From Pyrococcus kukulkanii (GTDB lineage: Archaea > Methanobacteriota_B > Thermococci > Thermococcales > Thermococcaceae): DNA of 64,000 nucleotides. Of the stretch, positions 5,055 to 58,204 are shown piece by piece. The stretch is taken from NCBI RefSeq assembly GCF_041647995.1, contig NZ_JARRIB010000003.1, forward strand, positions 248,001 to 312,000, written 5' to 3'. The notes beneath the pieces were generated by a model. It had not been told where the DNA came from and searched no databases. It worked only from the letters and a program-made list of their open reading frames with translations. Both the position numbers and the translations under genes were made by a program. Within the stretch, counting starts at the first letter, position 1. Each line of letters begins with the position of its first letter.

Positions 5055-7544
5055 TTAGCTAAAGCTCGCGAACCCTATTTCATATAGCTGGCGAAGCATT
5101 CTCAGGACTTTCTTGGCGGTGTGCCGATACACGTAGTTGCCTGGGTTAGTGAGCTCTTTAACGACAGCCCTACTTTTGTCCTGCCAATTTTCAGTTCCAA
5201 ATATATCTTTAAATAGCTCATCGGCCGTTTTGTGCACGTCTTCATCTTTTAGCTCTCCTTCTTTAGCAAGCTTAAGGAGAAGCAGTAAAGGCTTTTCAAG
5301 TTTCTTCCTGTTTCCGTGGAACTTCGGAAGGATTTTCATTAGAATTGCTAGGTCGAATATTTCATCGTCGTTCTCAAAGCTGACTATACCCTTGCTTTTT
5401 TGTGCATTATCAAAGAACAATGCTATTTCATCAACAACCCTGTAGCCAAAGTGCAGATCATATGGCTCTAAGGCCCTGTTCAGCTGTTCGAGGGCCTCCC
5501 AGTACTTTCCGTTTTCAGCTTTTTTGAGCTTTTTAATGGCTTCCCCTATATCCTTCTTGTCAAATGCAAGGAACTTTCCGTTCCTCCTTAGGTCGTTAAG
5601 AATGGTTTTCCTGAGCTGTTCACGTTTTTCCCAGGACAACTTGCTTTCCTCTGGAGGATAGCTTTCAAGGTCAACGTCGTGAAATTCTATCGTGAACGCC
5701 CTGTCAAGAACCTTGGGACTGAACATATAAGTTGTCTCGTCTATATTCACCGTTCCAATTATGTAGAGGTTTGGTGGAAGTTTAATCTCCTTGGGTATCC
5801 CCTGCTCTTTTTCGACTTCATCTACATCATGGAGCTTTATGCTCTCCCTTGTAAAGCCGTCCTCATCTCTGCCACTCTCGAGGACACTTAAGAAGTCGGC
5901 AAAGTAGTACTCAACGTGAGCCAAGTTCATCTCGTCGAGGATTATGAAGTAGGGCATTGCTTTTTCCTTATTCTTCTCATAGTCCTCCTTGGCCCTCAAT
6001 ATGAACTCTAGGAGAGGAGTTTTGTAGTACTTGCCGTCTAATGGATTATAGTAGCCTAGTAAAGGCTTGGAATCTCTCCAGTCTGGACGGACGGAGAGGA
6101 AAAGGGAATTATCTATAATTGATCCACATATAGTTGTAATTAAGCGTTTCAATGCTAAAGGCAATTTGACAATTTTGCTGTATCCACTTTGGGAGACTTG
6201 TTGAGGGGAATATACTTTCCCATCATCTTTTTCGATTACAGTATCTGAGACCTTAACTAATGAAGTCACTGGGATAATTTTGGAAATTTCAAAAAAGACA
6301 ACCCTATCATTTTCATCCTTTATATGTTTAAATCTATTTAGGTGCTTTGTTGTATCCTCATTAAATGATTGGCCGACGTCTTTTCCTCCATAGCTATCTA
6401 ATGTCCATCTATAACCTCTGAGCAATCTCTCCTTTAATTTATCATCTCTTTGAACATCTTTTAATTGGTAAACCTTGTTAACTAGGAACCCTGCTCTGAT
6501 GAGATTCTTATAGACAACCCATAAAATAAAAGGAGTTTCAATTTTTATTGTCTTGCCAGCAGGCCCCCATACTAAAACGGCGTATCCAATATCGTTTATT
6601 GTTTTAGAAATTTCTTCTAGGGCTTTCTTTAATTGCTGTTCAGTATCCTCGCTCCCCCATGCAGTTAATAGTTGTGGAAAATTTATTAGTAACTCAGCAA
6701 ACTCCAAGGCAATCTTTGTCTTCCCCGTACCACTTAATCCAGAGAGAATGACAAATCCTTTAGTCTTTAGAGCAACGTAGAATTGGGAAATTGTTGTGGG
6801 AGAGTATAAATACCCAATGGAGGAATAGTATTCATTCAGTGATCCATGGCTGACGTCGTTGCTTTTTGAGACTCTTTCAATTTGCTGGTTATGTAGGTTG
6901 TCCTTAAATTTGCTGAGGTAAAACACAATTTCAAGTGCAGTTTCTGCTCCTACTCTGTTTTTTATGATGTTTACTACATAAACGAACTTTAGGTAATTAT
7001 TTACGTAGTTTTTCCACCCTGGGCCCCATTTTAGTTCAAAACCGAGCACTTTCCTTAGCATTAAATTAAATTCTTTTGGAATGGTGCCTATAAAGACAGG
7101 AACAAATATGTGAGGATTTACAATTGTTAGCCAAGTGCTTATTATAGACAAGCCAACATCATGTATTTCTAACTCTCTTATCTCTTTCTCTAATCTTTCA
7201 ATATCTTCAGGAGTTAAGTTTTCCTTATCTTTAATTGAGGAGAGCAACTTTCTGAATTTTTTATCTGCAAGTATGCGCCTTAACAGTTTATCCCTATTTC
7301 CGCTGTCGGTCGCGTGTGAAAAGTAAAGCAGTGATCTAGTAGTTGGGGGTATCTTTCGAATTAAATCCTTAACTTCCTCAATAGATATATTCTCCTCAGA
7401 TACAAGCTTGTCGGATATTTCTCTAAATATGCCTAACGTCTTGCTTTTATTATTTTCCCAATCTTTTTGGTATTCTCTTTTTAGCTTCTTAATGATTTCT
7501 TCTATCTCAGATATTTTTTGATGGTCAAAGTTAAAGCTTCCCAT
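5055..7544 (-). CDS. Large McrB-like AAA+ NTPase with an insertion between Walker A and B
   Basis: An 829-residue protein, predicted motor of a type IV (McrBC-like) restriction system. ATG 7544 follows a perfect AGGAGGTGG site. Residues 1-240 are a helical N-terminal region of unknown fold. Walker A is GLSGTGKT (269-276). Walker B is FIILDEMN (533-540), and the McrB-type sensor segment is GTVNIDETT (597-605), followed by the arginine-containing KVLDRAF. Walker A and the conserved SVRPDWRDSKPLLGYYNP block (484-501) normally lie close together but here are about 190 residues apart. The insertion includes DRVVFFEISKIIPVTSL and may be a separate beta-rich domain. This is the last gene of a five-gene operon, 13 bp after the DUF2357 nuclease. 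The coding sequence is AT-rich compared with neighbours outside the island. Confidence 0.85.
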   Translation of the reverse strand: MGSFNFDHQKISEIEEIIKKLKREYQKDWENNKSKTLGIFREISDKLVSEENISIEEVKDLIRKIPPTTRSLLYFSHATDSGNRDKLLRRILADKKFRKLLSSIKDKENLTPEDIERLEKEIRELEIHDVGLSIISTWLTIVNPHIFVPVFIGTIPKEFNLMLRKVLGFELKWGPGWKNYVNNYLKFVYVVNIIKNRVGAETALEIVFYLSKFKDNLHNQQIERVSKSNDVSHGSLNEYYSSIGYLYSPTTISQFYVALKTKGFVILSGLSGTGKTKIALEFAELLINFPQLLTAWGSEDTEQQLKKALEEISKTINDIGYAVLVWGPAGKTIKIETPFILWVVYKNLIRAGFLVNKVYQLKDVQRDDKLKERLLRGYRWTLDSYGGKDVGQSFNEDTTKHLNRFKHIKDENDRVVFFEISKIIPVTSLVKVSDTVIEKDDGKVYSPQQVSQSGYSKIVKLPLALKRLITTICGSIIDNSLFLSVRPDWRDSKPLLGYYNPLDGKYYKTPLLEFILRAKEDYEKNKEKAMPYFIILDEMNLAHVEYYFADFLSVLESGRDEDGFTRESIKLHDVDEVEKEQGIPKEIKLPPNLYIIGTVNIDETTYMFSPKVLDRAFTIEFHDVDLESYPPEESKLSWEKREQLRKTILNDLRRNGKFLAFDKKDIGEAIKKLKKAENGKYWEALEQLNRALEPYDLHFGYRVVDEIALFFDNAQKSKGIVSFENDDEIFDLAILMKILPKFHGNRKKLEKPLLLLLKLAKEGELKDEDVHKTADELFKDIFGTENWQDKSRAVVKELTNPGNYVYRHTAKKVLRMLRQLYEIGFASFS

Positions 7545-7557
7545 AAATTGCCACCTC

Positions 7558-9171
7558 CTATGGCCGGAATTTTAAATATCCAATACCTTGGAAATCTTCA
7601 ATGAATACATCTCTCATATCTTTCACTCCATAATGTTCCTTCAAATTAACATTAAAGAATGCACTCCTCTCCCCAGGATAAAGAACCACCGCAAACTTAG
7701 CCCTTAGAGCATCCCTATATGTGTGCATCTTGTATATATCTTCAAGCTTTGCCCACGTCTTAAGGTCTGGCCTCTGCTCCATCTCCCTATCTTCTTCAGC
7801 AAATTTACTTGTATCAGCAGTTTCAACCTTGAATTTTGCATCAAAAATTCCAATCAACTTTGTTCCTGACTTATTGGGGTCTCCATCGAAAAGAGAGAAA
7901 TCAGGCCTTAGAGATACTGAATAGCTCCATTTTTTAGGTTTGGGAGTAAGCTTCTTGTTGTAGTAAAGCCTCCAGCCATTGTCAAATTCCGCGTAAACAT
8001 CACCCTCTTCTGAGAGCTCACCAAGAGGTGAAATAATAATCTTGGTATCCCTACTTCTAAGTATCTCCCCAAGCTCCTCCACAAGCTTAAAGAAGCACCA
8101 GTACTCGTAGAGCTTTGGAATATCCTTGTTGTTTATCGCCCTCAACATCTCCTCAAAAAACGGTGAGTAGCTATTAAACTCCCTCCAGAGCTGGAGCAGG
8201 TCCCTGTAGCCCTCGCGCTTGAGGAGCACTTGGGATGTATATGGAAACATCTCCATTTCGCCAACATCCTCAAATATATCGCTCGTCGCATAGTACTCCA
8301 AGTCCTCAAGGATGGGCTTAAGGTTGGACACCGCTTTTTCTTTCTGCTCCCTTGTTAGGTAAGATGAGTTAAGGATAGCGCTGATTGCTCTCTCGCCCCA
8401 CGTTATCAGCTCGTTGAGGAAGTGTTTTGCGAATCTGTTCTCGTGGGTGTCGAAGCTCTCGTACTTAATTCTCTGGCTAACTTTTAAGGGCGCGTAGCCT
8501 TTCAGGTGCTTTGCAATATTGGAAGAAGATTTAACTAAATACTCTGGATGAGTCGCTATTGAAAGTACTGTCCCTTCGTATACCTCGCTGACCTCCCAGA
8601 AGTTTACCCACTCCTCCTTTTCAACCAACTTTCTGTGTGGATGCTTTAGAATTTCCTCGTACGCTGAAATTATTCTCTCCCGATTGTTCACGAGGAAGTG
8701 ATATGCAAAGAGCTCATTTACGGGTTCTTCGGACTCCTTAACGCTGAATGCAGTTGGGGTGGAAATAGAAAATGGGAGCGTAATCGCCTTGTTTGTTATA
8801 TCTTCAACTAACGCCCTGTAAAGCCTCTCGTGTTTTTCTACTATGCTACCCTCCTTGTAAATCCTGTCAATTTTGTCCGAGAGAACCTCAACTTCAACTG
8901 TTAACTTGCCCTCTCCATCTATGATCTCTATTCTTGCCTTTCCAATGTAGTTCCTAAATTGAAAGGTGGCTATGTACGTGTTTTTATTGATCTTCTCAGC
9001 TCTGACGATGTACTCTCCGGTCTTCACGCTGAACTCTCTATTCCCAATGATCATATATTCCCGCCACTCGAAAAGATACACTCTTTTCTCACGTTTTAGG
9101 AGAGTTCCACCTTTAGTCCTCAGAATGTAGCCCCTGCCAAGGGGTAGCTCCTTTAATTCTCCACCGTCCAT
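7558..9171 (-). CDS. DUF2357 / PD-(D/E)XK nuclease, McrC-like partner
   Basis: A 537-residue protein of the DUF2357 (DUF524) family, which pairs with McrB-type NTPases. Residues 1-330 are the DUF2357 region, and residues 350-537 the nuclease domain. Visible catalytic elements are YEYWCFFKLVEEL (E356), LRPDFSLFDG (D424) and GIFDAKFKV (D444, K446), followed by KMHTYRDALRA (481-491). These fit the PD-(D/E)XK order E...PD...DxK...Y. The ATG at 9171 lies 3 bp after the stop of the amidotransferase gene, and the next gene begins 13 bp downstream, so translational coupling is likely. I infer it is the DNA-cutting subunit driven by the McrB-like protein. Confidence 0.85.
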   Translation of the reverse strand: MDGGELKELPLGRGYILRTKGGTLLKREKRVYLFEWREYMIIGNREFSVKTGEYIVRAEKINKNTYIATFQFRNYIGKARIEIIDGEGKLTVEVEVLSDKIDRIYKEGSIVEKHERLYRALVEDITNKAITLPFSISTPTAFSVKESEEPVNELFAYHFLVNNRERIISAYEEILKHPHRKLVEKEEWVNFWEVSEVYEGTVLSIATHPEYLVKSSSNIAKHLKGYAPLKVSQRIKYESFDTHENRFAKHFLNELITWGERAISAILNSSYLTREQKEKAVSNLKPILEDLEYYATSDIFEDVGEMEMFPYTSQVLLKREGYRDLLQLWREFNSYSPFFEEMLRAINNKDIPKLYEYWCFFKLVEELGEILRSRDTKIIISPLGELSEEGDVYAEFDNGWRLYYNKKLTPKPKKWSYSVSLRPDFSLFDGDPNKSGTKLIGIFDAKFKVETADTSKFAEEDREMEQRPDLKTWAKLEDIYKMHTYRDALRAKFAVVLYPGERSAFFNVNLKEHYGVKDMRDVFIEDFQGIGYLKFRP

Positions 9172-9174
9172 GCC

Positions 9175-10140
9175 TTATCCCTCGACAATTAGCTTAATTA
9201 TCGCCCTCCTATAATCATTCACCGCGACTCCTCCCCTAGTAATTTTCAGGAGTTTCAAATCTACGAGCCTTTTCACTGTGTTATCAATCTCGGGGCTCTC
9301 TCCATTCAGAACCGCTCGAAGAACTTCAATCTCATCCTTCCTGAGCATGGGCTCAATTTTCCTGCCGACTTTAAGCAATAAAGCACCGTCCCTGAAAATG
9401 TAAAGCTTATTTTTCTCCATCTTCTCCCATTTTTCATCCGTGAGCCTTCTCGTAGCTACGAGGTACGCGTACTCGTCCTGAGCCTTCATATCTCCCACTG
9501 AAACTTCAAAGTCCTCATCAAGAAGCCTTGCATGGCCTCTATGGGGAGGATGACGCCTAAGTAGCCACATGCCCTTGCCCGGGTAGTGCGTGTAGGCAAA
9601 GAGGTATCTGCCGTTACTCATAAGAACATTAAGCGTCCCATAATCGCTGAGCTCGTCTAAGATGCTTTGTAGTTTGATGAAGAGCTCCCTTATTGTCCCT
9701 ATCCCCTCCAAATTCTCCATTATATAGCAGAATGCCGCCTCAGAGTCCGTCGTCCCTAAGGGCTTAAAGCGTTTTGGCAACTCTTCGACTCCGTCTAAAA
9801 CTCCATTGTGTGCAAATATCCACTCATCGTACTGACCAACGCTCCAAATCCTCCTTACGAAGGGATGCGTGTTGAGGTAGCCTATCTCGCTCGTTGCAAG
9901 TCTCACGTGGCTTATTACTATTTGGCCCTTTATCCTCAGTGTGGGAACTGCGAGGGCTATCCTGCTTCTATATGCAGGGATTGGCTGCTTTATTACTGAA
10001 AGGTTCCTACTTCCAGCGAGGTGGCTGTACCACCCAATGCCCCAGCCATCGGGATTATACTCGCTCTTCCTTATAAAGCCCCTCCAGGTAAAATTGACGT
10101 CGACATCTTTGTTCGCATTCACACCAAAAAGCTCGCACAT
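9175..10140 (-). CDS. Class II glutamine amidotransferase (GATase_4, YafJ/EgtC-like)
   Basis: A 321-residue protein. ATG 10140 is chosen because it places Cys2 (MCELFGVNAN) at the N-terminus after Met removal, as the N-terminal nucleophile mechanism needs, and GGGAGGG lies upstream. Other family motifs are NPDGWGIGWYS, IVISHVRLATS, NTHPF, FAHNGVL and TTDSEAAFCYIM. Such enzymes release ammonia from glutamine or hydrolyse a gamma-glutamyl amide. Residues beyond about 250 form an extra C-terminal part (KLYIFRDGALLLKVG, then a helical segment like a small winged helix). It sits 10 bp after the PD-(D/E)XK gene and 3 bp before the DUF2357 gene, inside a restriction-type operon. The substrate is unknown. 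Confidence 0.85.
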   Translation of the reverse strand: MCELFGVNANKDVDVNFTWRGFIRKSEYNPDGWGIGWYSHLAGSRNLSVIKQPIPAYRSRIALAVPTLRIKGQIVISHVRLATSEIGYLNTHPFVRRIWSVGQYDEWIFAHNGVLDGVEELPKRFKPLGTTDSEAAFCYIMENLEGIGTIRELFIKLQSILDELSDYGTLNVLMSNGRYLFAYTHYPGKGMWLLRRHPPHRGHARLLDEDFEVSVGDMKAQDEYAYLVATRRLTDEKWEKMEKNKLYIFRDGALLLKVGRKIEPMLRKDEIEVLRAVLNGESPEIDNTVKRLVDLKLLKITRGGVAVNDYRRAIIKLIVEG

Positions 10141-10150
10141 TATCCCTCCC

Positions 10151-11191
10151 TCACGGCACCACTTCATAGATCCTTATTGCCAAACTATCACCATCGACAT
10201 CAATGTCCTTCCTAAATCTGCAGATGATGATTGGTTCGGGCCAGTGCTGAGGCTCCCCTATACTCTTCATAACCTCATTAATCAGCCACTTTGCACGCTT
10301 CTCCTTCCTTTCCTTGTTTTTAAAGAGGATGTAATCCCTTGTTAGCTTGAATCCTTTGTTGATTTCTAGATCAAAGAATTCCATCAATTTATTTTGGGGA
10401 TTGCGGTAATATCTAATCATTTCTTGATCAACTAGGTATACGAAGTACCGTTTTATGACTTCATTTGATTTGAACAACGCAAGCCTGAGTATATCAGCGA
10501 ATGCAGAACCGGCTACCTGAGATCTTGGAATGTTCCTCTTACTCGGGATCTTAGTCTTGAACTTCATTTCAAACGCTAGAGCAGGTCTATTATTGGCAGG
10601 AGCAATATACGTGTCAATCTTTGCGTACTTTACATGTGGGATATTTTGAGGTGGATATTCAAGGTAAATGGTGAGGGGATCAATATCAGCAGTGGTTGTT
10701 AAGGCGTAGAACATCATGTATCTAACTGTGTCTTCGCTTTCTTCATAGAGATGGTTTGCCTCAGAGCGTTTTTCTGCTATGGCTTTAATCCTTTCCTCTA
10801 TAAGAGAAGCGAACTTTTTAAAGGCTCTGTAAATTTCAATATCGAACTTTTCTGGCGGGAATTCTATGGTATCAACTAAGGTTCTCACATCTGCAGAAGT
10901 TTTGGGAATATTAGTATCAACATTCTTTCCCGTGGGCTCTTTCATAACTATCTTAAACCCCAGTCTCTTTAGATGTCGCACTGCCTCATGGGTATTAAAT
11001 TCTGCAGGGCTTAGAAATTCTCCGTTAGCGTATTTATTTGCCAAAGATATTATGTACTTTGGAGGATAATACTTTCCCTCATAAACAAGGAAGTATGTTA
11101 CTGATTTGTACTGGCTCGGAACTCCATTCGCTTTTACTTCTTCAAGTGCCTTTATCACATCCTCTCTGGAGATATTCCTTGGCACCGGCAT
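10151..11191 (-). CDS. ScoMcrA-N-like head domain fused to a predicted PD-(D/E)XK nuclease
   Basis: A 346-residue protein with ATG 11191 after AGGAGGTG. Residues 8-82 form a small domain (VYEGKYYPPKYIISLA, then HLKRLGFKIV) of the type found at the N-terminus of ScoMcrA and some HNH and McrB proteins. A related copy begins the McrB protein encoded at 14056-15402. Residues 110-346 look like a restriction-endonuclease fold: EESEDTVRYMM (E150-E153), KIDTY (D193) and AFEMKFK (E208, K210). Nuclease activity is an inference from this D...ExK pattern. The gene is 11 bp downstream of the MBL gene and 10 bp upstream of the amidotransferase. Confidence 0.65.
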   Translation of the reverse strand: MPVPRNISREDVIKALEEVKANGVPSQYKSVTYFLVYEGKYYPPKYIISLANKYANGEFLSPAEFNTHEAVRHLKRLGFKIVMKEPTGKNVDTNIPKTSADVRTLVDTIEFPPEKFDIEIYRAFKKFASLIEERIKAIAEKRSEANHLYEESEDTVRYMMFYALTTTADIDPLTIYLEYPPQNIPHVKYAKIDTYIAPANNRPALAFEMKFKTKIPSKRNIPRSQVAGSAFADILRLALFKSNEVIKRYFVYLVDQEMIRYYRNPQNKLMEFFDLEINKGFKLTRDYILFKNKERKEKRAKWLINEVMKSIGEPQHWPEPIIICRFRKDIDVDGDSLAIRIYEVVP

Positions 11192-11202
11192 CTTAACACC
11201 TC

Positions 11203-12744
11203 CTAAATCTCAAAGCTTTCCCCGTTATTCAGAATAACAACTCTTTCTGACCCAAACACACCTTTAAACCACTCAGGGTTCTCCGTGTGAACTGGAATTA
11301 TATAGTCAGGATCTACCTCCTCAATAACCTTGATCAGGTCTTCCCTCGAAGCATGTCCGGAAGCGTGAAGCCCCTTCTCAAACACCGGCCTTCCATCTCT
11401 TAGAACTTTGAAACCGTAAACCTCGAACCCGAAGTGCTGGAGCCAGTTCCAGAGCCTCAAGAAGCTGAACACCTGCTCCTCGGTGAAGGCCTCGCTAGAG
11501 GAGTATATGTAAACTCCACCGCTTGGCATGATGTCGAGCAGATGGGGCATGTCGTAGAATGAGAAGCAGAGAATGTAGTTTTCTAGGTTCTCTTTTATCT
11601 CTTCAGGAGTGACCTTCAGCTCCCCGTACCTCTCGAACACCCAGAGTTCCCATTTTCTAGGGTCTGCCTTTAGGTTTTCGTAAATCCCAACACCCTCGAG
11701 GTAGTTCACTCCTTCAGCCAGAGTTAAGGCGTGGAGGAAGTAAGCGTCTTTGCTCGTTATTACCAGCTCCCTTCCAGTCTTTTTGGCGATCTTCTTGAAG
11801 GTCTCCAGCCTCTCGAAGTTCCTCGGTGAAAAATCTGCAACCACGAGCCCGTTTGCCTCTTCAACTATACCGAGGGCGTTTTCATAAACCTCATCCTCTG
11901 AGACGTTGAAGTCTTCCCTGTTTATCCTCGTGCCCTCCGTAATCAAAACGCTCGCATTTTTGGCCTCTCTGATGAACTTTTTCGTTAGTTCCCTGCGCTC
12001 CCCGTGAAGCCTAAAGTCTCCCGTGTAAGCTATGACACCGTCGATTACGTAACCTACGGCTCCATAGATAGAGTGGTCAACAGGGTAAGCTTTTACCTCC
12101 CAGGGGAAGTCCCATTCCTCAATGCTGACGATCTGTCCGACTCTTATCTTCCTCGCCCTGTTGCTCCTCGCCAGCTCTAACTCCGGCCTCCACCTCATGA
12201 ATTTCTCGATGTCATGTTTGAGTTTTTCCGTCACTACCATATCCCTCGCTATGTAATCCCCCTTCCTGTCCGACTTTAGGACGTTTAGATTTCCATTCAC
12301 AGGAGTTTTCGGGCTGTAGTAGGGGAGCTCCATTCCCATATGAGAGTTTTGAGAGGTGTCCCGGAGGGCCTTCAGAATGACGAGGGTAGTAGGCGAAGCG
12401 ACTATTGGTATATTTTCCCTCAGCAAGGCTATATTGCCAACGTGATCGAGGTGTGCGTGGCTTATCAACACCGCGTCCACTCGGGGGGCTGGATATCTCC
12501 TAACGATCTCGCTTAGATCCTGGGGGATTAAGTCGGCCCTGTAGATGTTGAGCTTGGGGATTAGGTTCAGCATCCAAAGATCGTAGATTCCACGGGCAGG
12601 TCTTTCCCTAAGGAACTCCTCGTAGTATATTGAGTATTTCGCAAAGTTCATGCCAAAATCTAGGAAAATACCATTTCTGCCGTCTTCAACGTGGATTTTT
12701 GTACCGCCTATAGTATCGGCCCCGTCATAAATGGTTATCTTCAT
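11203..12744 (-). CDS. MBL-fold beta-CASP nuclease, RNase J-like
   Basis: A 513-residue protein starting at ATG 12744, or ATG 12747, with GGAGG just upstream. Motifs of the metallo-beta-lactamase/beta-CASP nuclease family are complete: SHAHLDHVGN (near residue 95), PVDHSIYG (near 222), YTGDFRLHG (near 240), the beta-CASP motif HASGHAS (about 460-466) and PVHTE (about 484-488). Family members degrade or process RNA or DNA with two zinc ions. This copy lacks KH domains, so it is not the archaeal CPSF paralogue. It is the first gene of the five-gene operon and has its own promoter. A defence role is inferred from context only. Confidence 0.85.
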   Translation of the reverse strand: MKITIYDGADTIGGTKIHVEDGRNGIFLDFGMNFAKYSIYYEEFLRERPARGIYDLWMLNLIPKLNIYRADLIPQDLSEIVRRYPAPRVDAVLISHAHLDHVGNIALLRENIPIVASPTTLVILKALRDTSQNSHMGMELPYYSPKTPVNGNLNVLKSDRKGDYIARDMVVTEKLKHDIEKFMRWRPELELARSNRARKIRVGQIVSIEEWDFPWEVKAYPVDHSIYGAVGYVIDGVIAYTGDFRLHGERRELTKKFIREAKNASVLITEGTRINREDFNVSEDEVYENALGIVEEANGLVVADFSPRNFERLETFKKIAKKTGRELVITSKDAYFLHALTLAEGVNYLEGVGIYENLKADPRKWELWVFERYGELKVTPEEIKENLENYILCFSFYDMPHLLDIMPSGGVYIYSSSEAFTEEQVFSFLRLWNWLQHFGFEVYGFKVLRDGRPVFEKGLHASGHASREDLIKVIEEVDPDYIIPVHTENPEWFKGVFGSERVVILNNGESFEI

Positions 12745-12786
12745 CATCAACCCTCCGAGGAGGCTTCAGCACGTGCTCCATAACAA

Positions 12787-12813
12787 GAGTTATTGTAACT
12801 CATTTATAAAAAG
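12787..12813 (-). promoter_or_regulatory. Promoter of the five-gene operon with an abutting palindrome
   Basis: On the minus strand TTTTTATAAATG (12802-12813) is a good archaeal TATA box, 60 bp before ATG 12744. Directly downstream, at the expected transcription start region, is a perfect inverted repeat GAGTTA-TTG-TAACTC (12787-12801). Its position suggests an operator that would block RNA polymerase. Confidence 0.5.
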
Positions 12814-12835: not shown

Positions 12836-14056
12836 TTACTCTTGATTATTGAAATAATTCCTAAAGTTGAGGTCAAGGTAGCCCTCCCTTAGTACTTCAA
12901 GGTCATAAGGCAAAATTTTGACCCTGCTATCATCGAAGAATTCAAGTTCCTGGGGCTCTAAATCTTTATTAAACCCCTCCGTCCTGGGGAATATCAGGAA
13001 TGCTCTACCTTCTTCTCCTTGAAACTCCAAGATCTTCGAGTAAACGTAGATCTGCCTTAAAATGTCTGGCTCAGCGTTCCACTCCCTGTACTTTGCATCG
13101 GCAACTCCAACGCCCTCAATTACGTAGTCGGGCCTCGCCTTTAGCACATCTTTAACGAACCAGAACTCCCTTTGATAGTGAACTCTGAAGCCGGAACTCC
13201 TCAAAGCCCACAATATGAACCTCTCAAAGAGCTCGTTCATGTCCACGAAGAACCCTCCAACGCTCTCCCCACCTTCGGCGATTGAGCCCAGGATGATCTT
13301 AGCTAGGTTGAATGGCTTCCTAAATCTCTCGTTCAGCCTCGTGAAGTGAACCCTCTCGAAGTCCCTAGGAGTAATCCTCTTGGGGGTTACGTCTGCGAAG
13401 ACCAACATCAACGATTCCAGTAACCTTCTATTTCCTTCCCATCTAGTTTTGGAGAGGGCAAACCTCGTCGTGAAGTAGAATATCTGGTTTAGGAGGTTGT
13501 CCTGGGTGAACTCATGGATCTCGACTGTGAACTCGTGCATCTTGTGCGGCAGCTTTAGTATCTGCCTCCCAACGAGTAGCTTTCCCCTAAGGAACTTTTC
13601 CTCCGATACCCTCTGAACGTACTCCCTGTGGTGGCCCTTCAGGATTTCCTCCCATAGGCTCTTTGCGTACAGGAAAACTAGAACTTCAAAGATGTCCCTG
13701 GGGGCTTTAAGGGATTTGAAGGTTGCAAGATCCACATCGTAAATGTTGAGGCCGTAGGAAACGTTCAGCATCTTCATTAAACCGATGATAGCGTCAAGCT
13801 CTCCCCAGGATTTAAAGACCTTTGGGAGCACTTGAATTGACAAATCTCCGGCAAAAGCGAAGCCCACGTAGTGCTTGGCCTTTATCCCTTCGGCCGTTAC
13901 TTGGAGGAAGCCGTTCTCCTCGGTGAACTCCTCCTGGGGGCTGTCGTTTGATGTCGAAGTTGGACGCGGGAGAGCTCTGTTAATGAGTTTTATTGCCTCC
14001 CTAACGCTCTCATCAACTTCCCTGGGTTCGTGTTCAAAAAGTGTTATGGAAGGCAT
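12836..14056 (-). CDS. mcrC: McrC, nuclease subunit of a McrBC restriction system
   Basis: A 406-residue McrC-family protein. The N-terminal region (about 1-110) ends in AGDLSIQVLPKVF, typical of McrC. The middle contains FLRGKLLVGRQ and the TQDNLLNQIF segment. The C-terminal PD-(D/E)XK domain shows MNELFERF (E275), ARPDYVI (D310), GVADAKY (D320, K322) and RQIYVYS. It is the endonuclease recruited by McrB. ATG 14056 overlaps the TAA of mcrB by one base (TAATG), so the two are translationally coupled. The next operon begins about 80 bp downstream behind its own promoter. Confidence 0.9.
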   Translation of the reverse strand: MPSITLFEHEPREVDESVREAIKLINRALPRPTSTSNDSPQEEFTEENGFLQVTAEGIKAKHYVGFAFAGDLSIQVLPKVFKSWGELDAIIGLMKMLNVSYGLNIYDVDLATFKSLKAPRDIFEVLVFLYAKSLWEEILKGHHREYVQRVSEEKFLRGKLLVGRQILKLPHKMHEFTVEIHEFTQDNLLNQIFYFTTRFALSKTRWEGNRRLLESLMLVFADVTPKRITPRDFERVHFTRLNERFRKPFNLAKIILGSIAEGGESVGGFFVDMNELFERFILWALRSSGFRVHYQREFWFVKDVLKARPDYVIEGVGVADAKYREWNAEPDILRQIYVYSKILEFQGEEGRAFLIFPRTEGFNKDLEPQELEFFDDSRVKILPYDLEVLREGYLDLNFRNYFNNQE

Positions 14057-15402
14057 TACTCATCCTCCACTATTCTCTTGAGGGCGTTGATGAAGTCCTT
14101 TCCTTCTAGATGTTTTATTCTGTAAATTGACCTCTCACCGAATGGTGTTTTGACTTTCTCTTCTTCGATGAAGTCCCCCAGGATGGACTTCAGGCTCTCC
14201 CAGTCGTTGTAGAAGTACTCTTGCAGTAAGGGGATTATCTCTTGGTACCAGACCCTGTGGAGCTCTTCCCTAGTGTTGATGTTGATGAAGTAGCTATGGC
14301 CTATCCTGTGATCCCTGTCCTTTAAGGCTTCGATTTTCTTGTTCAAGCTTTCCAAGAGTTTAGCGAGATTAATGCCTTCGATAACGTTACCCTTTAGTTT
14401 CTCTGGCTCCGGTTCTACTTCAATGAACGCAAACCTCCTCCTCAGGGCAATGTCTATTAAGGCAATGCTCCTATCTGCAGTGTTCATCGTCCCGATTATG
14501 TAGAGGTTCGGTGGCACTCCAAAGGGTTCTCTCGAGTAAGGGAGTGTAACGATGACTTCATTCTCTTGACCCAGCCTTTTGTCCCTTTCGAGGAGGGTAA
14601 TAAGCTCACCGAAGATTCTGCTTATATTCCCCCTGTTGATCTCGTCGATTATGAGGTAGAAGGTGGGAGCATCTTTGAAGAGCTCTTCCCTTTCCTCTTT
14701 TGATAACGATAGTAGGGCGTTCCATAATTTTTGCTTCAACTTATTATATCGGGAATAATCGGTGGAGTAATTTCTGAGATAATTTTCTAATTCCCCGATT
14801 TCGTCTTCAGTTAAGAGCCCTTTATTTTTTATTGCTTCGAGGATTGCTCTAAGGGCCAGTTTCTTGAATATTCCGTCCTCGATGACGTAGGTTATCTGAC
14901 CGTTTTCTGTTCTTGGTCTGAATCCCTCAACAAACTCTTCATAACTGTAAGATTGATGGAAGGTTATGAACTCCCATTTATTCCCAGGGACATCTTCTCT
15001 GGTGGCATCTTTTACGTATTTTAGAGCGAGCCAAGTCTTTCCAGTTCCTGGGGGACCATAGAGAATGATCTGACTTTTCACCGACAATAGGGCATATAGA
15101 GTAACTTTATATATCTGCTCTTCTTTATTAGGGGTATTATCTTCTTTATCATCAAGCTTTTTAATTTCAAATCCAAGCTTTTTTAGGTGAGGAATTACAT
15201 CCTTAGGTGTGTACTCTCTTGTTGGCAGTTGTTCTCCAAACTTGCGTTCTCCAGCTATGGAAACTACGTATTTTACTGGGTATTCCTTGCCATTATAAAT
15301 CGGTATTCCTATCTCATCGATTTTCTTAATGGCGTATTTTATGTCTTCCTTATCTAATTGATGAATTTTCTTTATTACATCTCGCTTTTTAGCGGTTTTC
15401 AT
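14056..15402 (-). CDS. mcrB: McrB, AAA+ NTPase with ScoMcrA-N-like head domain
   Basis: A 448-residue protein that powers DNA translocation for McrC. ATG 15402 follows AGGAGGG. Residues 18-82 form the head domain (NGKEYPVKYVVSIA, then HLKKLGFEIK), related to the N-terminus of the protein at 10151-11191. The AAA+ core shows Walker A GPPGTGKT (116-123), FHQSYSYEEFVEGFRP (148-163), Walker B YLIIDEINRG (249-258), MNTADRS (306-312) and the ALRRRF arginine segment (319-324). Canonical McrB recognises modified DNA through its N-terminal domain; here the head domain probably takes that role. Confidence 0.9.
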   Translation of the reverse strand: MKTAKKRDVIKKIHQLDKEDIKYAIKKIDEIGIPIYNGKEYPVKYVVSIAGERKFGEQLPTREYTPKDVIPHLKKLGFEIKKLDDKEDNTPNKEEQIYKVTLYALLSVKSQIILYGPPGTGKTWLALKYVKDATREDVPGNKWEFITFHQSYSYEEFVEGFRPRTENGQITYVIEDGIFKKLALRAILEAIKNKGLLTEDEIGELENYLRNYSTDYSRYNKLKQKLWNALLSLSKEEREELFKDAPTFYLIIDEINRGNISRIFGELITLLERDKRLGQENEVIVTLPYSREPFGVPPNLYIIGTMNTADRSIALIDIALRRRFAFIEVEPEPEKLKGNVIEGINLAKLLESLNKKIEALKDRDHRIGHSYFININTREELHRVWYQEIIPLLQEYFYNDWESLKSILGDFIEEEKVKTPFGERSIYRIKHLEGKDFINALKRIVEDE

Positions 15403-15557: not shown

Positions 15558-17258
15558 TTATTTAATTATTTCGGGATATATGTTTTTTAAAGCTCTATAT
15601 AACAATGTCATCCTTGTATTCAAAAATTCATCGTAGTTTTCAAGTTTCCATAATTCTGGCTCATATGGGATAAAATGTTTCTCTAGGGATTCTCTATGCC
15701 TCTGAGGGAGGTACTCCTGTGGTGGAGAATCCCCTATTTCGGAGTTTATGGCCTTATTTATTAGGGTTATGTTTCCAAGGTTGTTTATTTCAATGTCTCT
15801 TCTCTCAGGATCTTCCACTTCCAAGTTTTCCTCGAGAAATTTCTTAGGGAATATATGGTGACGTGTTAATTCTTCATAGCTGATTGAGGATATTAACTGC
15901 CCGTTCCAATCATCTGCATTATTGTTAGCAAGAGCAATATAAAGGAGAAATATGTAATTCCTTCCACTTCTTTTTAGGGTATTCTCCTCCCTACCTTTCA
16001 GTATCATCTGCTTAGTTATTTCAGTTGGGTAATTCCTGCTCTTCATGTTTTTTAGGAGTTCATTGTAAGGGAACGTTGAGGCAGATGATATCACTTTGAG
16101 ATCCTGCTCTAATTTGGAACTTGTCCAAGTGCTATAGTAACTTGTAAAGTTGGCGAGTATAAACCAGTTTAATATCTTTCTTTCTTCTTCATTACTAAGT
16201 TGTGATAGCTCATTTATATCTTGTAAGTATATATATCTTGCAACCGGGACTAGAGTTATTTGAGAAGGCAGTAGCTGGGAGCTTGGTAGTGGAAGTCTTC
16301 TTGCTATGAGTTCTATAGTAAGGGTGAAAGCTTCTGATGATTTTTCTAAAACAATATCTGTTTTATGTATCCTCTCATCCTCTGATATCTGTTTCAAGGC
16401 CTTTGCAAACTTATCTACTTTTGAAATTTGGGCTTGATTTATTCCAAGGTTTGCTAATATAAACCTTATTATCGGTTGAATGTCTACTTCAAACCCAAAA
16501 GTTTTGCGAATTTTCCTGTATATTCCTCTTGATATTGCATGTTTTACTTTTCCACCAAGTACGCTGGTCATCAAAGATAGCATAAGTTCTACGTTTCCTA
16601 TTCTAACTCCTTCCTTGTTTATCCTTATAAAAGCCTCTGCCATTTCGAGAATGGTTTCTTCACTTTCTTTCTGTGTCTCTATTATATATATAGGGAGTTC
16701 GTAAGTTGCTATTTTTGAAGCAAATCTTCTTGCTTTTTCAATGTACTCTTGTTCATATTTCCGTAAGTAATTTTGTGAATCACTATCAAAGGGGTTAAGA
16801 GCTATCTTCAATAGTTTCGATAAGTCTACCCCCCTCTTTTTGCTCTTGTATAACTTATATCCTCCATCTGGGGCTGGGGCTATCGAAATTGGGACTTTTA
16901 GGGATATCTCCTCTCCATTCCTTGTAATTCTCCATTCTCTAAACAGGAGGAGTAATGAAGTCAATCTTTGTTGTCCATCGAGGACATAATAATATTTTCC
17001 TCCATGGTTAATTGTTATATCGGCTAGTGGGAGAGAAAAGGGATTTTCTTTTATGAATTCTTCACTTGAGGGTGCCCATAAGATAATAGATCCTATTGGA
17101 TATCCGCGAATCATTGAATCTACCATAGATTTCACATCATCTTCATCCCATACATAGTCTCTTTGGAAGGGAGGTAGGTAGTAGTTATCAAGTTCTAGCG
17201 AGGATCTCATAAGCTCAAGCACTCTCACCTTTTCTACCTTTAAATTTAGTAACTCCAT
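15558..17258 (-). CDS. GmrSD-like DUF262 / HNH type IV restriction enzyme
   Basis: A 566-residue protein. ATG 17258 is favoured over GTG 17267 because GGTGA lies 5 nt before it. The N-terminal DUF262 (ParB/Srx-like NTP-using) domain shows LPPFQRDYVWDEDDVKSMVD, YPIGSIILW and YVLDGQQRLTSL. The C-terminal DUF1524-type HNH nuclease shows ELTRHHIFPKKFL (about 463-475) and INNLGNITLINKAIN (about 492-506). GmrSD enzymes cut glucosylated hydroxymethylcytosine DNA; single-chain DUF262-HNH proteins are widespread in defence islands. The gene has its own AT-rich promoter (TTTATTGTATAATTT, about 17285-17300). Confidence 0.88.
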   Translation of the reverse strand: MELLNLKVEKVRVLELMRSSLELDNYYLPPFQRDYVWDEDDVKSMVDSMIRGYPIGSIILWAPSSEEFIKENPFSLPLADITINHGGKYYYVLDGQQRLTSLLLLFREWRITRNGEEISLKVPISIAPAPDGGYKLYKSKKRGVDLSKLLKIALNPFDSDSQNYLRKYEQEYIEKARRFASKIATYELPIYIIETQKESEETILEMAEAFIRINKEGVRIGNVELMLSLMTSVLGGKVKHAISRGIYRKIRKTFGFEVDIQPIIRFILANLGINQAQISKVDKFAKALKQISEDERIHKTDIVLEKSSEAFTLTIELIARRLPLPSSQLLPSQITLVPVARYIYLQDINELSQLSNEEERKILNWFILANFTSYYSTWTSSKLEQDLKVISSASTFPYNELLKNMKSRNYPTEITKQMILKGREENTLKRSGRNYIFLLYIALANNNADDWNGQLISSISYEELTRHHIFPKKFLEENLEVEDPERRDIEINNLGNITLINKAINSEIGDSPPQEYLPQRHRESLEKHFIPYEPELWKLENYDEFLNTRMTLLYRALKNIYPEIIK

Positions 17259-17309
17259 TGGATTCACCTTCGAATGTTATTACCTAAATTATACAATAAA
17301 TATTAAAAG

Positions 17310-18257
17310 TTAACGTTTTGAGAGTATATGATTCACAAACCCCTCAATTATCCACCCAACAAGCTCCTTGTTCTCCACCTTTATCAGCCATTCCCTGGGA
17401 ATACCCTTTATCCCGTAGTAAGTCCCGGCAAGCCCTCCCGTTACTGCCCCAGTGGTATCAGCATCTTCTCCCAGAAATACTACCTCCCTTACCCCCTCCT
17501 CATAGCTTTCACTCCTCAGGAATGCCCAGAGGCTTGCTTCAAGTGTATGAACAACATATCCACTGCCCCTTATCTCCTCCCTGTGGTACTCGTGTATCCT
17601 CCCCTCCAGCACCCTCCTATAGCGCTTAAGCTCCTCCTTAAAGGGCTCCTTAGAGTAGAATTCCTTGGCGGTTTCAATGGCCCTTTCATATGCTTCAAAC
17701 TTATCAAGGCCCTCCAGGATCTCCCAGACCGTGAGAGCATAAATTCCACACCCCATCAGCGCCCTCGGGTGGGCGTGAGTTATCATGGAGACCTCATGGA
17801 TCAGGTTGAGCCTCTCTTCAAGCGAGTCGAGCTTAAAGTAGGCGTAGTACACAGCCGGGAGGATCCTCATCAGCGAGCCGTTTCCGTTGTCCCACTCTCC
17901 CCTGCCTCCAGCCTTCAAGGGCTCAACTCCTTTGGCAATCCTTTCTATGGCCCTTGACGTAGTGTAGCCTTCGTCGAAGGCATAGCCCCTTGGAGTGAAC
18001 TTTCCGTTATAGTACCACTCCACGAAATTCTTGGCTATCCTCTCAACGTCATATCCCTCGGTCAGGGCGTGGGCTGTGGCTAATGTCAAGGATGAATCAT
18101 CGCTCCAGAGCCCACTCATCATCTTTATGTCCCATGGACTCTTGAACATTTCCCTCATCTTGCTCTTCGACACGAACTGGAAGCTCAGCCCAAAGGCATC
18201 CCCCACTACAATGCCCCACAGCCCGCCGACGAGCCTAGAGCGAAGCGATGACTTCAT
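17310..18257 (-). CDS. ADP-ribosylglycohydrolase family protein (DraG/ARH-like)
   Basis: A 315-residue protein. ATG 18257 is chosen from AGGAGGTG 6 nt upstream. Family motifs are GLWGIVVGDAFG, WSDDSSLTLATAHAL (metal-binding Asp pair), GNGSLMRILPA, ITHAHPRA and the C-terminal GEDADTTGAVTGGLAG metal site. Members remove ADP-ribose from proteins, nucleic acids or small molecules using Mg ions. The start overlaps the end of the upstream NYN ribonuclease gene (stop near 18235), so the two form one translationally coupled unit. In this context it might reverse an ADP-ribosylation made during phage conflict, but no ADP-ribosyltransferase is visible here. Confidence 0.88.
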   Translation of the reverse strand: MKSSLRSRLVGGLWGIVVGDAFGLSFQFVSKSKMREMFKSPWDIKMMSGLWSDDSSLTLATAHALTEGYDVERIAKNFVEWYYNGKFTPRGYAFDEGYTTSRAIERIAKGVEPLKAGGRGEWDNGNGSLMRILPAVYYAYFKLDSLEERLNLIHEVSMITHAHPRALMGCGIYALTVWEILEGLDKFEAYERAIETAKEFYSKEPFKEELKRYRRVLEGRIHEYHREEIRGSGYVVHTLEASLWAFLRSESYEEGVREVVFLGEDADTTGAVTGGLAGTYYGIKGIPREWLIKVENKELVGWIIEGFVNHILSKR

Positions 18258-18768
18258 TCTTAACACCTCCTACCTCTAATCTTTCACTAGTGAACTGGGC
18301 GAGGTCTATGACCCCGTACCTCTCCGTTATTACCCTTGCCATGGTGTGCATGAACCCCGCGAAGAGGACCTCTTTCCCGAGCTCCCTTGCCTTGTCAGCT
18401 AGGGGCACGAAGTCTTTATCCCCAGAGATTATGATGAGCGCCTCAATGAAGGGACGTTCGTAGAGTACGCTCATTCCCTCTACTATCATTTCTGAGTCAG
18501 TTAGCGTCTTCACTCTGTCCCCGGCCTTAAACGAGGGTGTCAGCTCCACATGGATTCCAGCTCTCTCGAGGTTGTTAATCTGATCAAGCTTACCCAGGTA
18601 GAACGGGCTGGCGAAGCCTCTCGCAATGACGACTTCGTAGCCAAGGCCCTCCAGGTACATAAAGAGGGCCTTCCAGTTTACATCCCTGTCAAGCCTTGCG
18701 TCCTCCCCGTATAGATCCCTCAACCCGAGGACAACATTTTCCAAATCAACCAGCACGGCGGCCTTCAT
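18235..18768 (-). CDS. NYN-domain (LabA/DUF88) PIN-like ribonuclease
   Basis: A 177-residue protein. ATG 18768 (MKAAVLVDLEN) is supported by GGAGG upstream; the longer frame has no such site. Active-site acids of the NYN fold are visible: VDLEN near the N-terminus, TDSEMIVEGM (about 98-107) and ISGDKDFVPLADKAREL (about 120-136). NYN proteins are metal-dependent RNases related to PIN domains. It overlaps the ARH gene by 23 bp and is the most upstream gene of the island. Confidence 0.85.
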   Translation of the reverse strand: MKAAVLVDLENVVLGLRDLYGEDARLDRDVNWKALFMYLEGLGYEVVIARGFASPFYLGKLDQINNLERAGIHVELTPSFKAGDRVKTLTDSEMIVEGMSVLYERPFIEALIIISGDKDFVPLADKARELGKEVLFAGFMHTMARVITERYGVIDLAQFTSERLEVGGVKNEVIASL

Positions 18769-18794
18769 ACCCAACCCTCCGTAACTTATGTATG

Positions 18795-18823
18795 GGGAGA
18801 TGCTGTAATATCTCAAATCTCCC
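18795..18823 (-). promoter_or_regulatory. Inverted repeat in the leader of the NYN-ARH operon
   Basis: GGGAGAT (18795-18801) and ATCTCCC (18817-18823) are perfect 7-bp arms with a 15-nt loop. They lie between a TATA-like AAATTTATATAAC (about 18843-18855, minus strand) and ATG 18768. The leader would be about 50 nt. The repeat could be an operator or an RNA hairpin, possibly a self-cleavage site of the encoded RNase. Confidence 0.35.
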
Positions 18824-57700: not shown

Positions 57701-58204
57701 TCAAACTGCATGGGAACGATACACTCCAACTCCGCCAGGGAAACTATAATCAGGCTCGAGAGCCCTCCAATGAATGTCCCCAGGATAATGATACCTGCAC
57801 TTGATATAATAATAATGCAGGTAAGGTATCATACAAGAAAGAAAGGTACCATAAGGAGAATTACGGAAATAGCTGAAGTCTCTGGAATTGAAGGAGAAAG
57901 TGTTCAGTTGAACTTCCTTTACAAATATGATCCGGCAAAAGACGAGTTAGTAAGAACAGAAGTTCCCAGCAGGTTCCTCCAAACTTTATCATATCATACT
58001 GGAATGCACCCTGATGAATTAATGTACGAAATAGAAAAAAGGAAACTCGTCCTTGATTGGATGATTGAAAAGGGGATAAGGAGAATAGACGAAGTGGGAG
58101 CCCAGATTAGAGAGTTCTACATAGATGAAGAGGAGTTCTTTAAGAAAATAGAAAGAGAAGCAACAACAATAAAGACGAGTAAAAAAGCTAGGGAATTTAT
58201 CTGA
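54776..58204 (+). CDS. klbA: KlbA, type II/IV secretion ATPase containing an intein
   Basis: A 1142-residue precursor; the spliced protein is 620 residues. TTG 54776 is preceded by GGGGTGA. Residues 1-115 hold five short LxDIL-like repeats in Pro/Glu-rich linker. The ATPase core shows the P-loop GGTGSGKT (360-367), SIEDTAELQLP, DRIIVGEVRGPEA (Walker B), and after splicing NTGHDG-CMGTIHSNS. It is a VirB11/GspE/TadA-type motor driving pilus or secretion assembly. The intein (codons 456-977) interrupts the His-box segment. Operon with DUF515 upstream and two GspF/TadC genes downstream. Confidence 0.93.
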   Translation: MVEEKKKKSWIDEILSSDNLTLEAILKKGRVAEEGTDKKETAKSFSLGDILAGKQAPPPETKKPEEKPPLPLAFLKDQGAPKLEDILKRPEAPIRKTEEKPTISLQDILSAGGKPTEYIGEVKVLDVYGNIRVLRVKGEAVPIYEINLPKLSKEEEKLLKMVRDRAIVEIQIDPETIPNFEERRRVFMREVRRMVKEMAPTLSEGRVELLAELVVQNMIGYGKLDPLVRDDNLEEIMVIGTNRPVYVWHRRFGMCKTNIVFENEREILNIIERIAREVGRRIDQQNPLLDARLPDGSRVNATLPPISLDGPTLTIRKFKKDPLTIIDLIKYGTLNSEVAAFLWLLVDGLGVKPANILVAGGTGSGKTTTLNSLAMFIPPSERVISIEDTAELQLPIEHWVRLETRPPNVEGKGEITMDDLVKNTLRMRPDRIIVGEVRGPEARTMFTAMNTGHDGALYDFSVIQLSDGRFILIGDLLEELFKKYSDRIETYKDLEYVVLDEEDRFEVVSIGPDLKARKHIVSRIWRRKVREGEKLIRVITRTGNEVILTKTHPFFVFSEGDVVRKEAEKLKPGDRVAVMRKPPKPPQRKAIINPEIYAGISDYYLVPNGNGLAKVPNDGVPPEMAQYLLSINSKPVKIVREVNANLSYIVGVLLGNGYISSNGYYISATFDDESYMEAFTSAVQEFLPESEPQVKRESGYTVVTYGSKPFAEFLHRAFGIPKGREDAVDVPDLVLSNDDLLRHFIAGLFDADAYIDEKGPAVVLTTKSENLARKVWYALQRLGIISTVSRVKNRGYKEDVIFRVIVRGVENLVRFYTYIPLRHPRKKAKLEKIIKKHKAHRGKGADHVPISPVMLEPLRKKLGLTVSELSKLASYYAGEKVSESLIRHIEKGRIKKVRRSALKGISLALQQIARDIGDEDSWVQAKRLELIADGDVYWDEVVSIEEVDPRELGIEYVYDLTVEDDHNYIANGIVVSNCMGTIHSNSARETIIRLESPPMNVPRIMIPALDIIIMQVRYHTRKKGTIRRITEIAEVSGIEGESVQLNFLYKYDPAKDELVRTEVPSRFLQTLSYHTGMHPDELMYEIEKRKLVLDWMIEKGIRRIDEVGAQIREFYIDEEEFFKKIEREATTIKTSKKAREFI
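56141..57706 (+). other. KlbA intein with LAGLIDADG homing endonuclease
   Basis: A 522-residue intein. It begins with Ala1 (ALYDFSVIQLSDGRFILIGD), as in known KlbA inteins (class 2, no nucleophile at position 1), and ends VVSN followed by Cys+1 of the extein. Block B is TKTHPFFVF (Thr/His). Block F/G is YVYDLTVEDDHNYIANG. The endonuclease has two LAGLIDADG-type motifs, IVGVLLGNGYI and FIAGLFDADAYI. The first has Gly-Asn where Gly-Asp is usual, and both retain one acidic or polar residue at the end, so activity is uncertain. Its DNA is visibly richer in G/C third positions than the extein. Confidence 0.93.

What the first reader, a model, noticed from the sequence alone, without database searches (positions are those of the whole stretch)
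5055..12813. Five-gene operon pairing McrB/DUF2357 with an MBL beta-CASP nuclease, a second PD-(D/E)XK protein and a class II amidotransferase
Seen: five minus-strand genes with gaps of 11, 10, 3 and 13 bp behind one promoter. They encode an MBL beta-CASP nuclease, a ScoMcrA-N-like plus PD-(D/E)XK protein, a class II GATase, a DUF2357 nuclease and a large McrB-like NTPase. Known: McrB with DUF2357 or McrC forms type IV restriction systems, and MBL nucleases sometimes accompany defence genes. Inference: the tight spacing implies a single five-subunit system. I know of no described system with this set. The amidotransferase could add or remove an amide on a base or other small molecule.
Basis: partly seen in the sequence, partly recalled or inferred. 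Interest (0 to 1): 0.85.

Follow-up and report, generated by a model that had tools for sequence, protein, structure and literature searches.

The report
Modular archaeal McrB-type defence operon
The five genes form a genuine operon in a heat-loving archaeon, and it is one version of a mix-and-match DNA-restriction cluster that repeatedly combines McrB-type motors with an RNase J-like nuclease and small-molecule-trimming enzymes, a combination I found no description of in the papers I could search.

Summary
Five minus-strand ORFs have gaps of 11, 10, 3 and 13 bp, intact catalytic motifs and their own TATA-like promoter, in a Pyrococcus-like genome. They sit beside a second McrB-McrC pair, GmrSD, an ADP-ribosylglycohydrolase (ARH) and a NYN gene.

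There is no fixed five-subunit system: the DUF2357/McrB pair (NxD-type GTPase) lies away from the MBL in 26 of 35 archaeal loci. The RNase J-like MBL and the class II amidotransferase do belong with McrB-type systems. MBL genes lie within 10 kb of McrC or DUF2357 in 16 of 35 loci (0.43 expected); the amidotransferase lies near MBL, McrC or DUF2357 in 11 of 12. MBL + amidotransferase + gamma-glutamylcyclotransferase (GGCT) + McrBC recurs in methanogens in another order, and MBL-McrBC in Archaeoglobi beside CARF-like regulators. Between two close relatives the McrB-like recognition regions were replaced while motor and neighbours stayed 87-98% identical.

Best reading: a modular type IV-like restriction cluster. 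Motor-nuclease pairs cut foreign or modified DNA; the second nuclease and MBL add cleavage; amidotransferase, GGCT and ARH probably hydrolyse gamma-glutamyl or ADP-ribosyl adducts (inferred). New variant of a known kind.

The parts
11203..12744 (-). MBL: RNase J-like metallo-beta-lactamase/beta-CASP nuclease, 513 aa, all motifs present (HAHLDH, DHS, TGDFR, TEGT, HASGH, PVHTE)
   Evidence: TIGR00649 E=8.5e-23; AF2 pLDDT 91; Foldseek: 2az4, then archaeal RNase J
10151..11191 (-). PDX: N-terminal ScoMcrA-like head domain + C-terminal PD-(D/E)XK-like nuclease motif (D193, E208-x-K210 invariant in 6 orthologues), 346 aa
9175..10140 (-). GAT: stand-alone class II glutamine amidotransferase domain (Cys2 nucleophile), 321 aa
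7558..9171 (-). DUF2357-PDDEXK_7 protein (McrC-like nuclease of the NxD-type pair), 537 aa; RPDF...FDAKF catalytic motif intact
5055..7544 (-). McrBx: NxD-type McrB-like AAA+ NTPase, 829 aa; Walker A GLSGTGKT 269, Walker B FIILDE 533, GTVNIDE 597; variable N-terminal and Walker A-B insert regions
12802..12810 (-). Predicted TATA box (TTTATAAAT) of the five-gene operon, 58 bp upstream of the MBL ATG
   Evidence: sequence only, no transcript data
12836..14056 (-). McrC (PF10117) of the adjacent canonical pair
   Evidence: (E=2e-49)
14056..15402 (-). Canonical NxxD McrB (GTMNTADRS) with an N-terminal domain related to that of PDX
   Evidence: (31-42% identity between the N-terminal domains)
15558..17267 (-). 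GmrSD/DUF262-type protein (PADLOC HEC-05-like)
17310..18266 (-). ADP-ribosylglycohydrolase (ARH/DRAG-like); its orthologues sit inside the MBL-GATase-GGCT operon in sister loci
18235..18816 (-). NYN-domain protein; orthologue also heads the pTBMP1 cluster; predicted TATA at 18854-18846

Best explanation
The operon is one assembly of a modular, type IV-like restriction cluster of hyperthermophilic archaea. McrBx and DUF2357-PDDEXK_7 form a GTP/ATP-driven motor-nuclease pair that recognises foreign (probably modified) DNA through exchangeable N-terminal and insert domains and cuts it (inferred by homology to McrBC). PDX is a second reader-plus-nuclease, with a ScoMcrA-type N-terminal domain. MBL is an RNase J-like nuclease that degrades or processes the cut nucleic acid or associated RNA (inferred from fold and motifs). 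GAT, with GGCT and ARH where present, hydrolyses gamma-glutamyl/amide and ADP-ribosyl bonds, most likely to remove adducts from nucleic acid or from the system's own proteins (inferred, weakest step, perhaps 25%). Shown: composition, operon layout, intact motifs, cross-lineage association, partner exchange, recognition-region replacement. Inferred: every biochemical activity and the defence phenotype.
For: Motifs intact in all five. MBL next to McrC/DUF2357 16/35 vs 0.43 expected; GAT near MBL/McrC/DUF2357 11/12. GAT found in only 8 of 115 phylum genomes, every time beside MBL/PDX or McrC, so it is not a housekeeping gene. Independent recurrence in other lineages: c32-GGCT-GAT-x-x-x-McrB-McrC-MBL in G337 and, with a broken MBL, G216; MBL-TPR-GAT-McrB-McrC in Archaeoglobus (L125), MBL-McrB-McrC in L126 and L159. 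Partners interspersed on the MBL tree, at least 3 forced changes. Window vs G003: McrBx blocks 1-5 are 25-51% identical, blocks 6-9 90-98%, MBL and McrC 95-100%: recognition parts replaced under a conserved motor. In G003 the upstream McrB is dead (N-terminus missing, internal stop) while all five genes stay open, so the operon can be kept without that McrBC pair. Deleting McrBC pairs in T. kodakarensis raises transformation with autonomously replicating plasmids (PMC13385129). No viral contig carries the MBL or GAT in a pattern scan, arguing for host defence rather than a viral counter-weapon.
Against: No experiment on any of the five proteins. The DUF2357/McrBx pair usually stands alone (26/35 away from MBL), so it does not need MBL, PDX or GAT. 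19 of 35 MBL loci have no McrC/DUF2357 within 10 kb (some are contig-end truncated). A PF10117/DUF2357 gene is absent near the P. abyssi-type (L016) and G038 (L017) MBL-PDX-GAT clusters. Distant bacterial MBL homologues are not paired with McrBC. ARH and GGCT also occur outside such clusters. No substrate for GAT/GGCT/ARH is indicated by sequence.
Confidence: 0.55

Rival explanations
1. Two independent systems stacked in a defence island: an autonomous DUF2357-McrBx restriction pair, plus an MBL-PDX-GAT accessory set that belongs to the upstream McrBC or works alone. Tight spacing is recent and without functional meaning.
For: DUF2357-McrBx stands alone (-4 bp overlap) at the iorB/TBP hotspot in many Thermococcus genomes; 26/35 away from MBL. 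MBL-PDX-GAT-GGCT-ARH-TPR-c32 exists without any McrB-type gene nearby (L017). GAT sits beside McrC without DUF2357 in G104 and G131.
Against: MBL is directly joined to DUF2357-McrBx in at least 9 loci, some with no other accessory gene (L053) and on separate MBL branches. The order is kept in G003 although the upstream McrB there is dead, and in pTBMP1, which has no canonical McrBC near.
Confidence: 0.28
2. An RNA-directed or dormancy-type response akin to what was proposed for CoCoNuTs: an NxD McrB motor, an RNase J-like ribonuclease and (in other lineages) CARF-type sensors act on RNA after infection.
For: McrBx belongs to the NxD group by motif in 29 of 29 members, the same group as CoCoNuTs, predicted to target RNA (PMC11090510). 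MBL folds like RNase J. HFX_2341_N + wHTH proteins (CARF-like by my knowledge) lie upstream of MBL in Archaeoglobi (12 loci) and divergent from c32-GGCT-GAT in 4 Methanococci loci.
Against: No coiled-coil, CSD, HEPN or zinc-ribbon domain recognised in the five proteins by Pfam; DUF2357 keeps an intact PD-D-x-K nuclease, unlike many CoCoNuTs; no CARF-type gene in the Thermococcaceae loci; MBL also pairs with canonical DNA-cutting McrBC.
Confidence: 0.12
3. A metabolic or stress-adaptation island (heat, pressure), as module III of P. yayanosii PYG1 (TPR-ARH-GGCT-GAT-PDX) was read.
For: PYG1 deletion changes growth at 100 C and 80 MPa; module III transcripts respond to temperature and pressure (PMC5126054).
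Against: The deletion removed the whole island, including McrBC and TA genes. GAT is patchy (8/115 genomes) and always beside restriction genes. PDX carries a restriction-type reader and nuclease motif.
Confidence: 0.05

Closest known systems
McrBC type IV restriction systems (E. coli McrB-McrC)
   Same: McrB-type AAA+ motor next to a DUF2357-PD-(D/E)xK nuclease; variable recognition domains fused to the motor; a canonical pair lies directly upstream
   Different: NxD rather than NxxD motif; extra MBL, second reader-nuclease and GATase in the operon; no ADAM-type domain recognised
NxD-branch McrB systems, including CoCoNuTs (PMC11090510)
   Same: NxD(E) signature in 29/29 McrBx; McrC-like partner with DUF2357; CARF-like regulators near related loci; bacterial DUF2357 homologues beside DNA methyltransferases
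   Different: No coiled-coil/CSD/HEPN domains recognised; archaeal, where CoCoNuTs are nearly absent; active nuclease motif; MBL/GATase/GGCT/ARH partners: GATase and ADP-ribosyl terms absent from the main text and MBL only once, in a figure legend
PADLOC candidate PDC-M26
   Same: McrBx matches PDC-M26A, E=1.2e-50
   Different: None of the other four proteins matched a PDC-M26 model
P. yayanosii PYG1 modules II-III / T. barophilus pTBMP1 segment (PMC5126054)
   Same: Same PDX, GAT, GGCT, ARH, TPR genes, with McrBC in the island
   Different: Read there as metabolic; MBL not noted; no link made to a restriction system; DUF2357-McrBx absent from PYG1
RNase J / EF2904 (2az4)
   Same: MBL/beta-CASP/RMMBL fold and motifs
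   Different: Far from housekeeping RNase J (13-19% structural-alignment identity); horizontally patchy; linked to McrB-type genes

Membership tests
McrBC-type (type IV) restriction system | McrB-family AAA+ motor with Walker A/B and Nx(x)D signature | tested here: met
   GLSGTGKT, FIILDE, GTVNIDE present; PDB matches limited to McrB around the Walker B-signature region, E=0.027; PDC-M26A E=1.2e-50
McrBC-type (type IV) restriction system | Adjacent DUF2357 + PD-(D/E)xK partner | tested here: met
   PF09823 E=1.3e-40, PF04411 E=3.9e-18; 13 bp gap
McrBC-type (type IV) restriction system | Modification-dependent DNA cleavage | not testable with these tools
   needs biochemistry
NxD branch of McrB GTPases | NxD in place of NxxD, usually followed by E or D | tested here: met
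   VN[MI]DE in 29/29 McrBx; MNT[AS]DRS in 8/8 canonical McrB; phylogenetic placement not tested
CoCoNuT | Long coiled-coil fusion to the McrB-like GTPase and associated HEPN or other CoCoNuT domains | tested here: inconclusive
   No such Pfam domain found; no coiled-coil predictor was run
RNase J family | MBL + beta-CASP + RMMBL with complete metal motifs | tested here: met
   equivalog-level NCBIfam cut-offs not reached (80.5 of 400 bits for TIGR00649)
ScoMcrA-type type IV enzyme | N-terminal head domain | tested here: met
   weak but best hit 5zmm E=0.0097, N- to N-terminus
ScoMcrA-type type IV enzyme | SRA and HNH domains of ScoMcrA | tested here: not met
   C-terminus carries a PD-(D/E)XK motif instead; no SRA/HNH match
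EgtC (class II GATase of ergothioneine synthesis) | TIGR03442 cut-off | tested here: not met
   38.5 of 218.65 bits; GATase_4 family level only
PDC-M26 (PADLOC) | all system components | tested here: inconclusive
   only the McrBx-type component matched; the definition of the other components was not available

The most novel reading that the evidence does not exclude
A type IV-like restriction complex that carries its own chemical erasers: the class II GATase and GGCT cleave gamma-glutamyl (amide) adducts and ARH cleaves ADP-ribose from viral nucleic acid, stripping protective base modifications so that the McrB-type motor-nuclease, PDX and the RNase J-like MBL can destroy it. Sister islands with 3-methyladenine-type and AGOG glycosylases and NADAR would be further erasers of the same kind.
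Probability: 0.15. Interest if true: 0.88.

Novelty: new variant of a known kind. Interest (0 to 1): 0.6.

Why it matters
No NxD-type McrB has been characterised (PMC11090510), and no restriction system with an RNase J-like nuclease plus class II amidotransferase, GGCT and ARH turned up in the papers I could search. The association is statistically strong and crosses archaeal lineages, so MBL, GATase, GGCT and c32 gain a testable role. It also gives another reading of the P. yayanosii PYG1 island, published as a heat/pressure adaptation island. T. barophilus and P. yayanosii are culturable, gene deletion is published for P. yayanosii (PMC5126054), and T. kodakarensis strains lacking their known restriction systems exist (PMC13385129) as a clean background.

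Tried and rejected
Fixed five-gene system: rejected, the set is variable. GATase as housekeeping enzyme: rejected for this subfamily, 8/115 genomes. Virus-borne counter-defence: no MBL or GAT in scans of viral contigs, and only weak (about 25% identity) MBL homologues in phage records. ScoMcrA family membership of the whole PDX: rejected, no SRA/HNH. Structure of PDX by single-sequence AlphaFold: useless (pLDDT 36.9). I did not fold the PDX alignment because its other members came from loci that the folding tool does not accept. PDB sequence search for the CARF-like regulator gave nothing, and the paper search for it found nothing, so 'CARF-like' rests on Pfam HFX_2341_N/DUF6293_C plus my own knowledge. 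T. kodakarensis TK0794-0795 and TK1009-1010 are probably canonical McrC pairs (G030 has two PF10117 hits and no DUF2357 hit; identity of G030 inferred from size), so that experiment supports McrBC, not the DUF2357 pair. Bacterial plasmid MBL homologues (31-35% identity) showed no McrBC partner.

Full report
What is there. The window lies in a Thermococcales genome (G000, 2.05 Mb; genus mates have the exact contig sizes of known Pyrococcus genomes, my inference). Five minus-strand ORFs run from 12744 to 5055 with gaps of 11, 10, 3 and 13 bp: an RNase J-like MBL, a ScoMcrA-N + PD-(D/E)XK protein (PDX), a class II GATase (GAT), DUF2357-PDDEXK_7, and a McrB-like AAA+ protein (McrBx). Catalytic motifs are intact in all. 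A TATA-like box at 12810-12802 and an SD-like GGAGG precede the first gene. Directly upstream on the same strand are McrC, McrB, GmrSD, ARH and NYN.

Identity of the parts. MBL: Lactamase_B_2 + RMMBL, RNase J subfamily model E=8.5e-23; the AlphaFold model (27-sequence alignment, pLDDT 91) is closest to 2az4 and archaeal RNase J. GAT: GATase_4, Cys2 and glutaminase motifs conserved, no synthetase domain. PDX: the best PDB hit is ScoMcrA at the N-terminus (E=0.0097); D193/E208-x-K210 invariant. McrBx: NxD signature (VN[MI]DE in 29/29), while the neighbouring McrB family has NxxD (8/8). The McrBC census in PMC11090510 states that no NxD McrB GTPase has been characterised and that CoCoNuTs are nearly absent in archaea; its main text has no amidotransferase or ADP-ribosyl entry and mentions MBL once, in a legend.

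Is it one system? The same order recurs in G003. On pTBMP1 of T. barophilus the order is NYN-HsdR_N-MBL-PDX-GAT-GGCT-ARH-small-TPR-DUF2357-McrBx. Elsewhere in Thermococcaceae MBL is followed by c10-McrB-McrC (L051, L060), DUF2357-McrBx alone (L053), GGCT-ARH-c32-c10-McrB-McrC (L054), or PDX-N/EVE-McrB-McrC(-GAT) (L020, L055), among others. 15 of 26 Thermococcaceae MBL loci, several of them truncated by contig ends, have a McrB-type AAA+ gene nearby (my count from the maps). DUF2357-McrBx is often a two-gene unit, commonly between iorB and the TBP gene. Counting over 396 archaeal genomes for MBL and McrC and the phylum set for DUF2357: MBL within 10 kb of McrC/DUF2357 16/35 (0.43 expected under uniform placement), GAT 11/12, DUF2357 near MBL 9/35. 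The null is simple and ignores clustering of defence genes, so part of the excess reflects islands in general; the near-zero intergenic distances, repeated order and cross-lineage recurrence go beyond that.

Other lineages. In G337 the order is c32-GGCT-GAT-x-x-x-McrB-McrC-MBL, with the same in G216 (MBL broken) and c32-GGCT-GAT...McrB-McrC in G176; in G320 (M. jannaschii size) only GGCT-GAT remain. In Archaeoglobi MBL is 53-58% identical and lies with McrB-McrC, TPR and GAT-like genes in several loci, with an HFX_2341_N + wHTH regulator (CARF-like) in 12 loci. The same regulator type is divergent from the c32/GGCT-GAT operon in four Methanococci loci.

Evolution. On the MBL tree, DUF2357-linked and McrC-linked members are interspersed, with at least three forced changes. 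Between window and G003, MBL, PDX, GAT, McrC and the McrBx motor are 85-100% identical per block, but McrBx residues 1-500 are only 25-51% identical: the N-terminal and Walker A-B insert regions, where McrB specificity domains sit, were replaced or diverged fast. G003's upstream McrB lacks its first 116 residues and has an internal stop, yet the five-gene operon is intact.

Mechanism. Best supported: type IV-like restriction with exchangeable recognition parts (0.55). The role of MBL (end processing of DNA, or RNA decay) and of GAT/GGCT/ARH (adduct removal, or regulation) is inferred. The eraser idea draws on accessory genes in sister islands (3-methyladenine-type glycosylase fused to c32, AGOG, NADAR) and on the precedent that DNA glycosylases act in defence against modified phages (PMC11078745); no gamma-glutamyl DNA in archaeal viruses is known to me.

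Published context. PYG1 of P. yayanosii carries McrBC with a methyladenine glycosylase (module II) and TPR-ARH-GGCT-GAT-PDX (module III), read as metabolic; deletion of the island alters growth at 100 C and 80 MPa. Deletion of two McrBC pairs in T. kodakarensis raises transformation efficiency with autonomous plasmids. Neither tests the genes studied here one by one.

Verdict. Observation confirmed; interpretation partly supported; a new variant of a known kind, with the MBL/GATase/GGCT/ARH module as the new element.

Noticed in passing
L117 4060-13375; L116 5910-12900; L114 9068-12818; L119 5369-7957: Sister islands in Thermococcaceae combine ARH (two paralogues), TPR protein, AGOG glycosylase, DUF6884, NADAR and an unknown 280-290 aa family (famX): a second modular set sharing ARH/GGCT/TPR with the MBL clusters.
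   Followed up: partly
L119 6770-7123 (G000:C2:186778-187095): The window's own genome keeps a GGCT gene directly after an AGOG glycosylase gene in another island, so the GGCT missing from the window operon may be supplied elsewhere.
   Followed up: no
L124, L126, L128-L131, L133, L141, L146, L148, L165; L073: HFX_2341_N/DUF6293-type (CARF-like) regulator gene near the MBL gene, directly upstream in several loci, in one overlapping it by 4 bp; also beside a distant MBL in L073. MBL may have an older link to nucleotide signalling than to McrBC.
   Followed up: partly
L127 6949-7995; L133 9475-10032; L124 5676-6554: Proteins with a weak tubulin/FtsZ-like match, one fused to a dual-specificity phosphatase, next to MBL in Archaeoglobi.
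   Followed up: no
L090, L094, L096-L101, L106-L108, L111 and others: DUF2357-McrBx pair inserted between indolepyruvate oxidoreductase genes (iorAB) and the TBP gene in many Thermococcus genomes: a defence-gene hotspot.
   Followed up: partly
L016 10284-11538: In the P. abyssi-sized genome (G001) both GAT and GGCT are frameshifted beside an intact MBL and PDX: decaying copy of the accessory module.
   Followed up: no
L020 5905-10043: McrB of G043 carries the PDX-type N-terminal domain and an EVE-like domain fused to the motor, and a separate EVE-like gene lies just upstream of MBL.
   Followed up: no
window 54776-58204: Type II/IV secretion ATPase-like gene (archaellum/pilus type) that appears to contain an intein with a homing-endonuclease-like insert.
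   Followed up: no
L203 15414-17522: Sacsin/HATPase-type protein follows McrB-McrC in a Methanocaldococcus-like genome.
   Followed up: no
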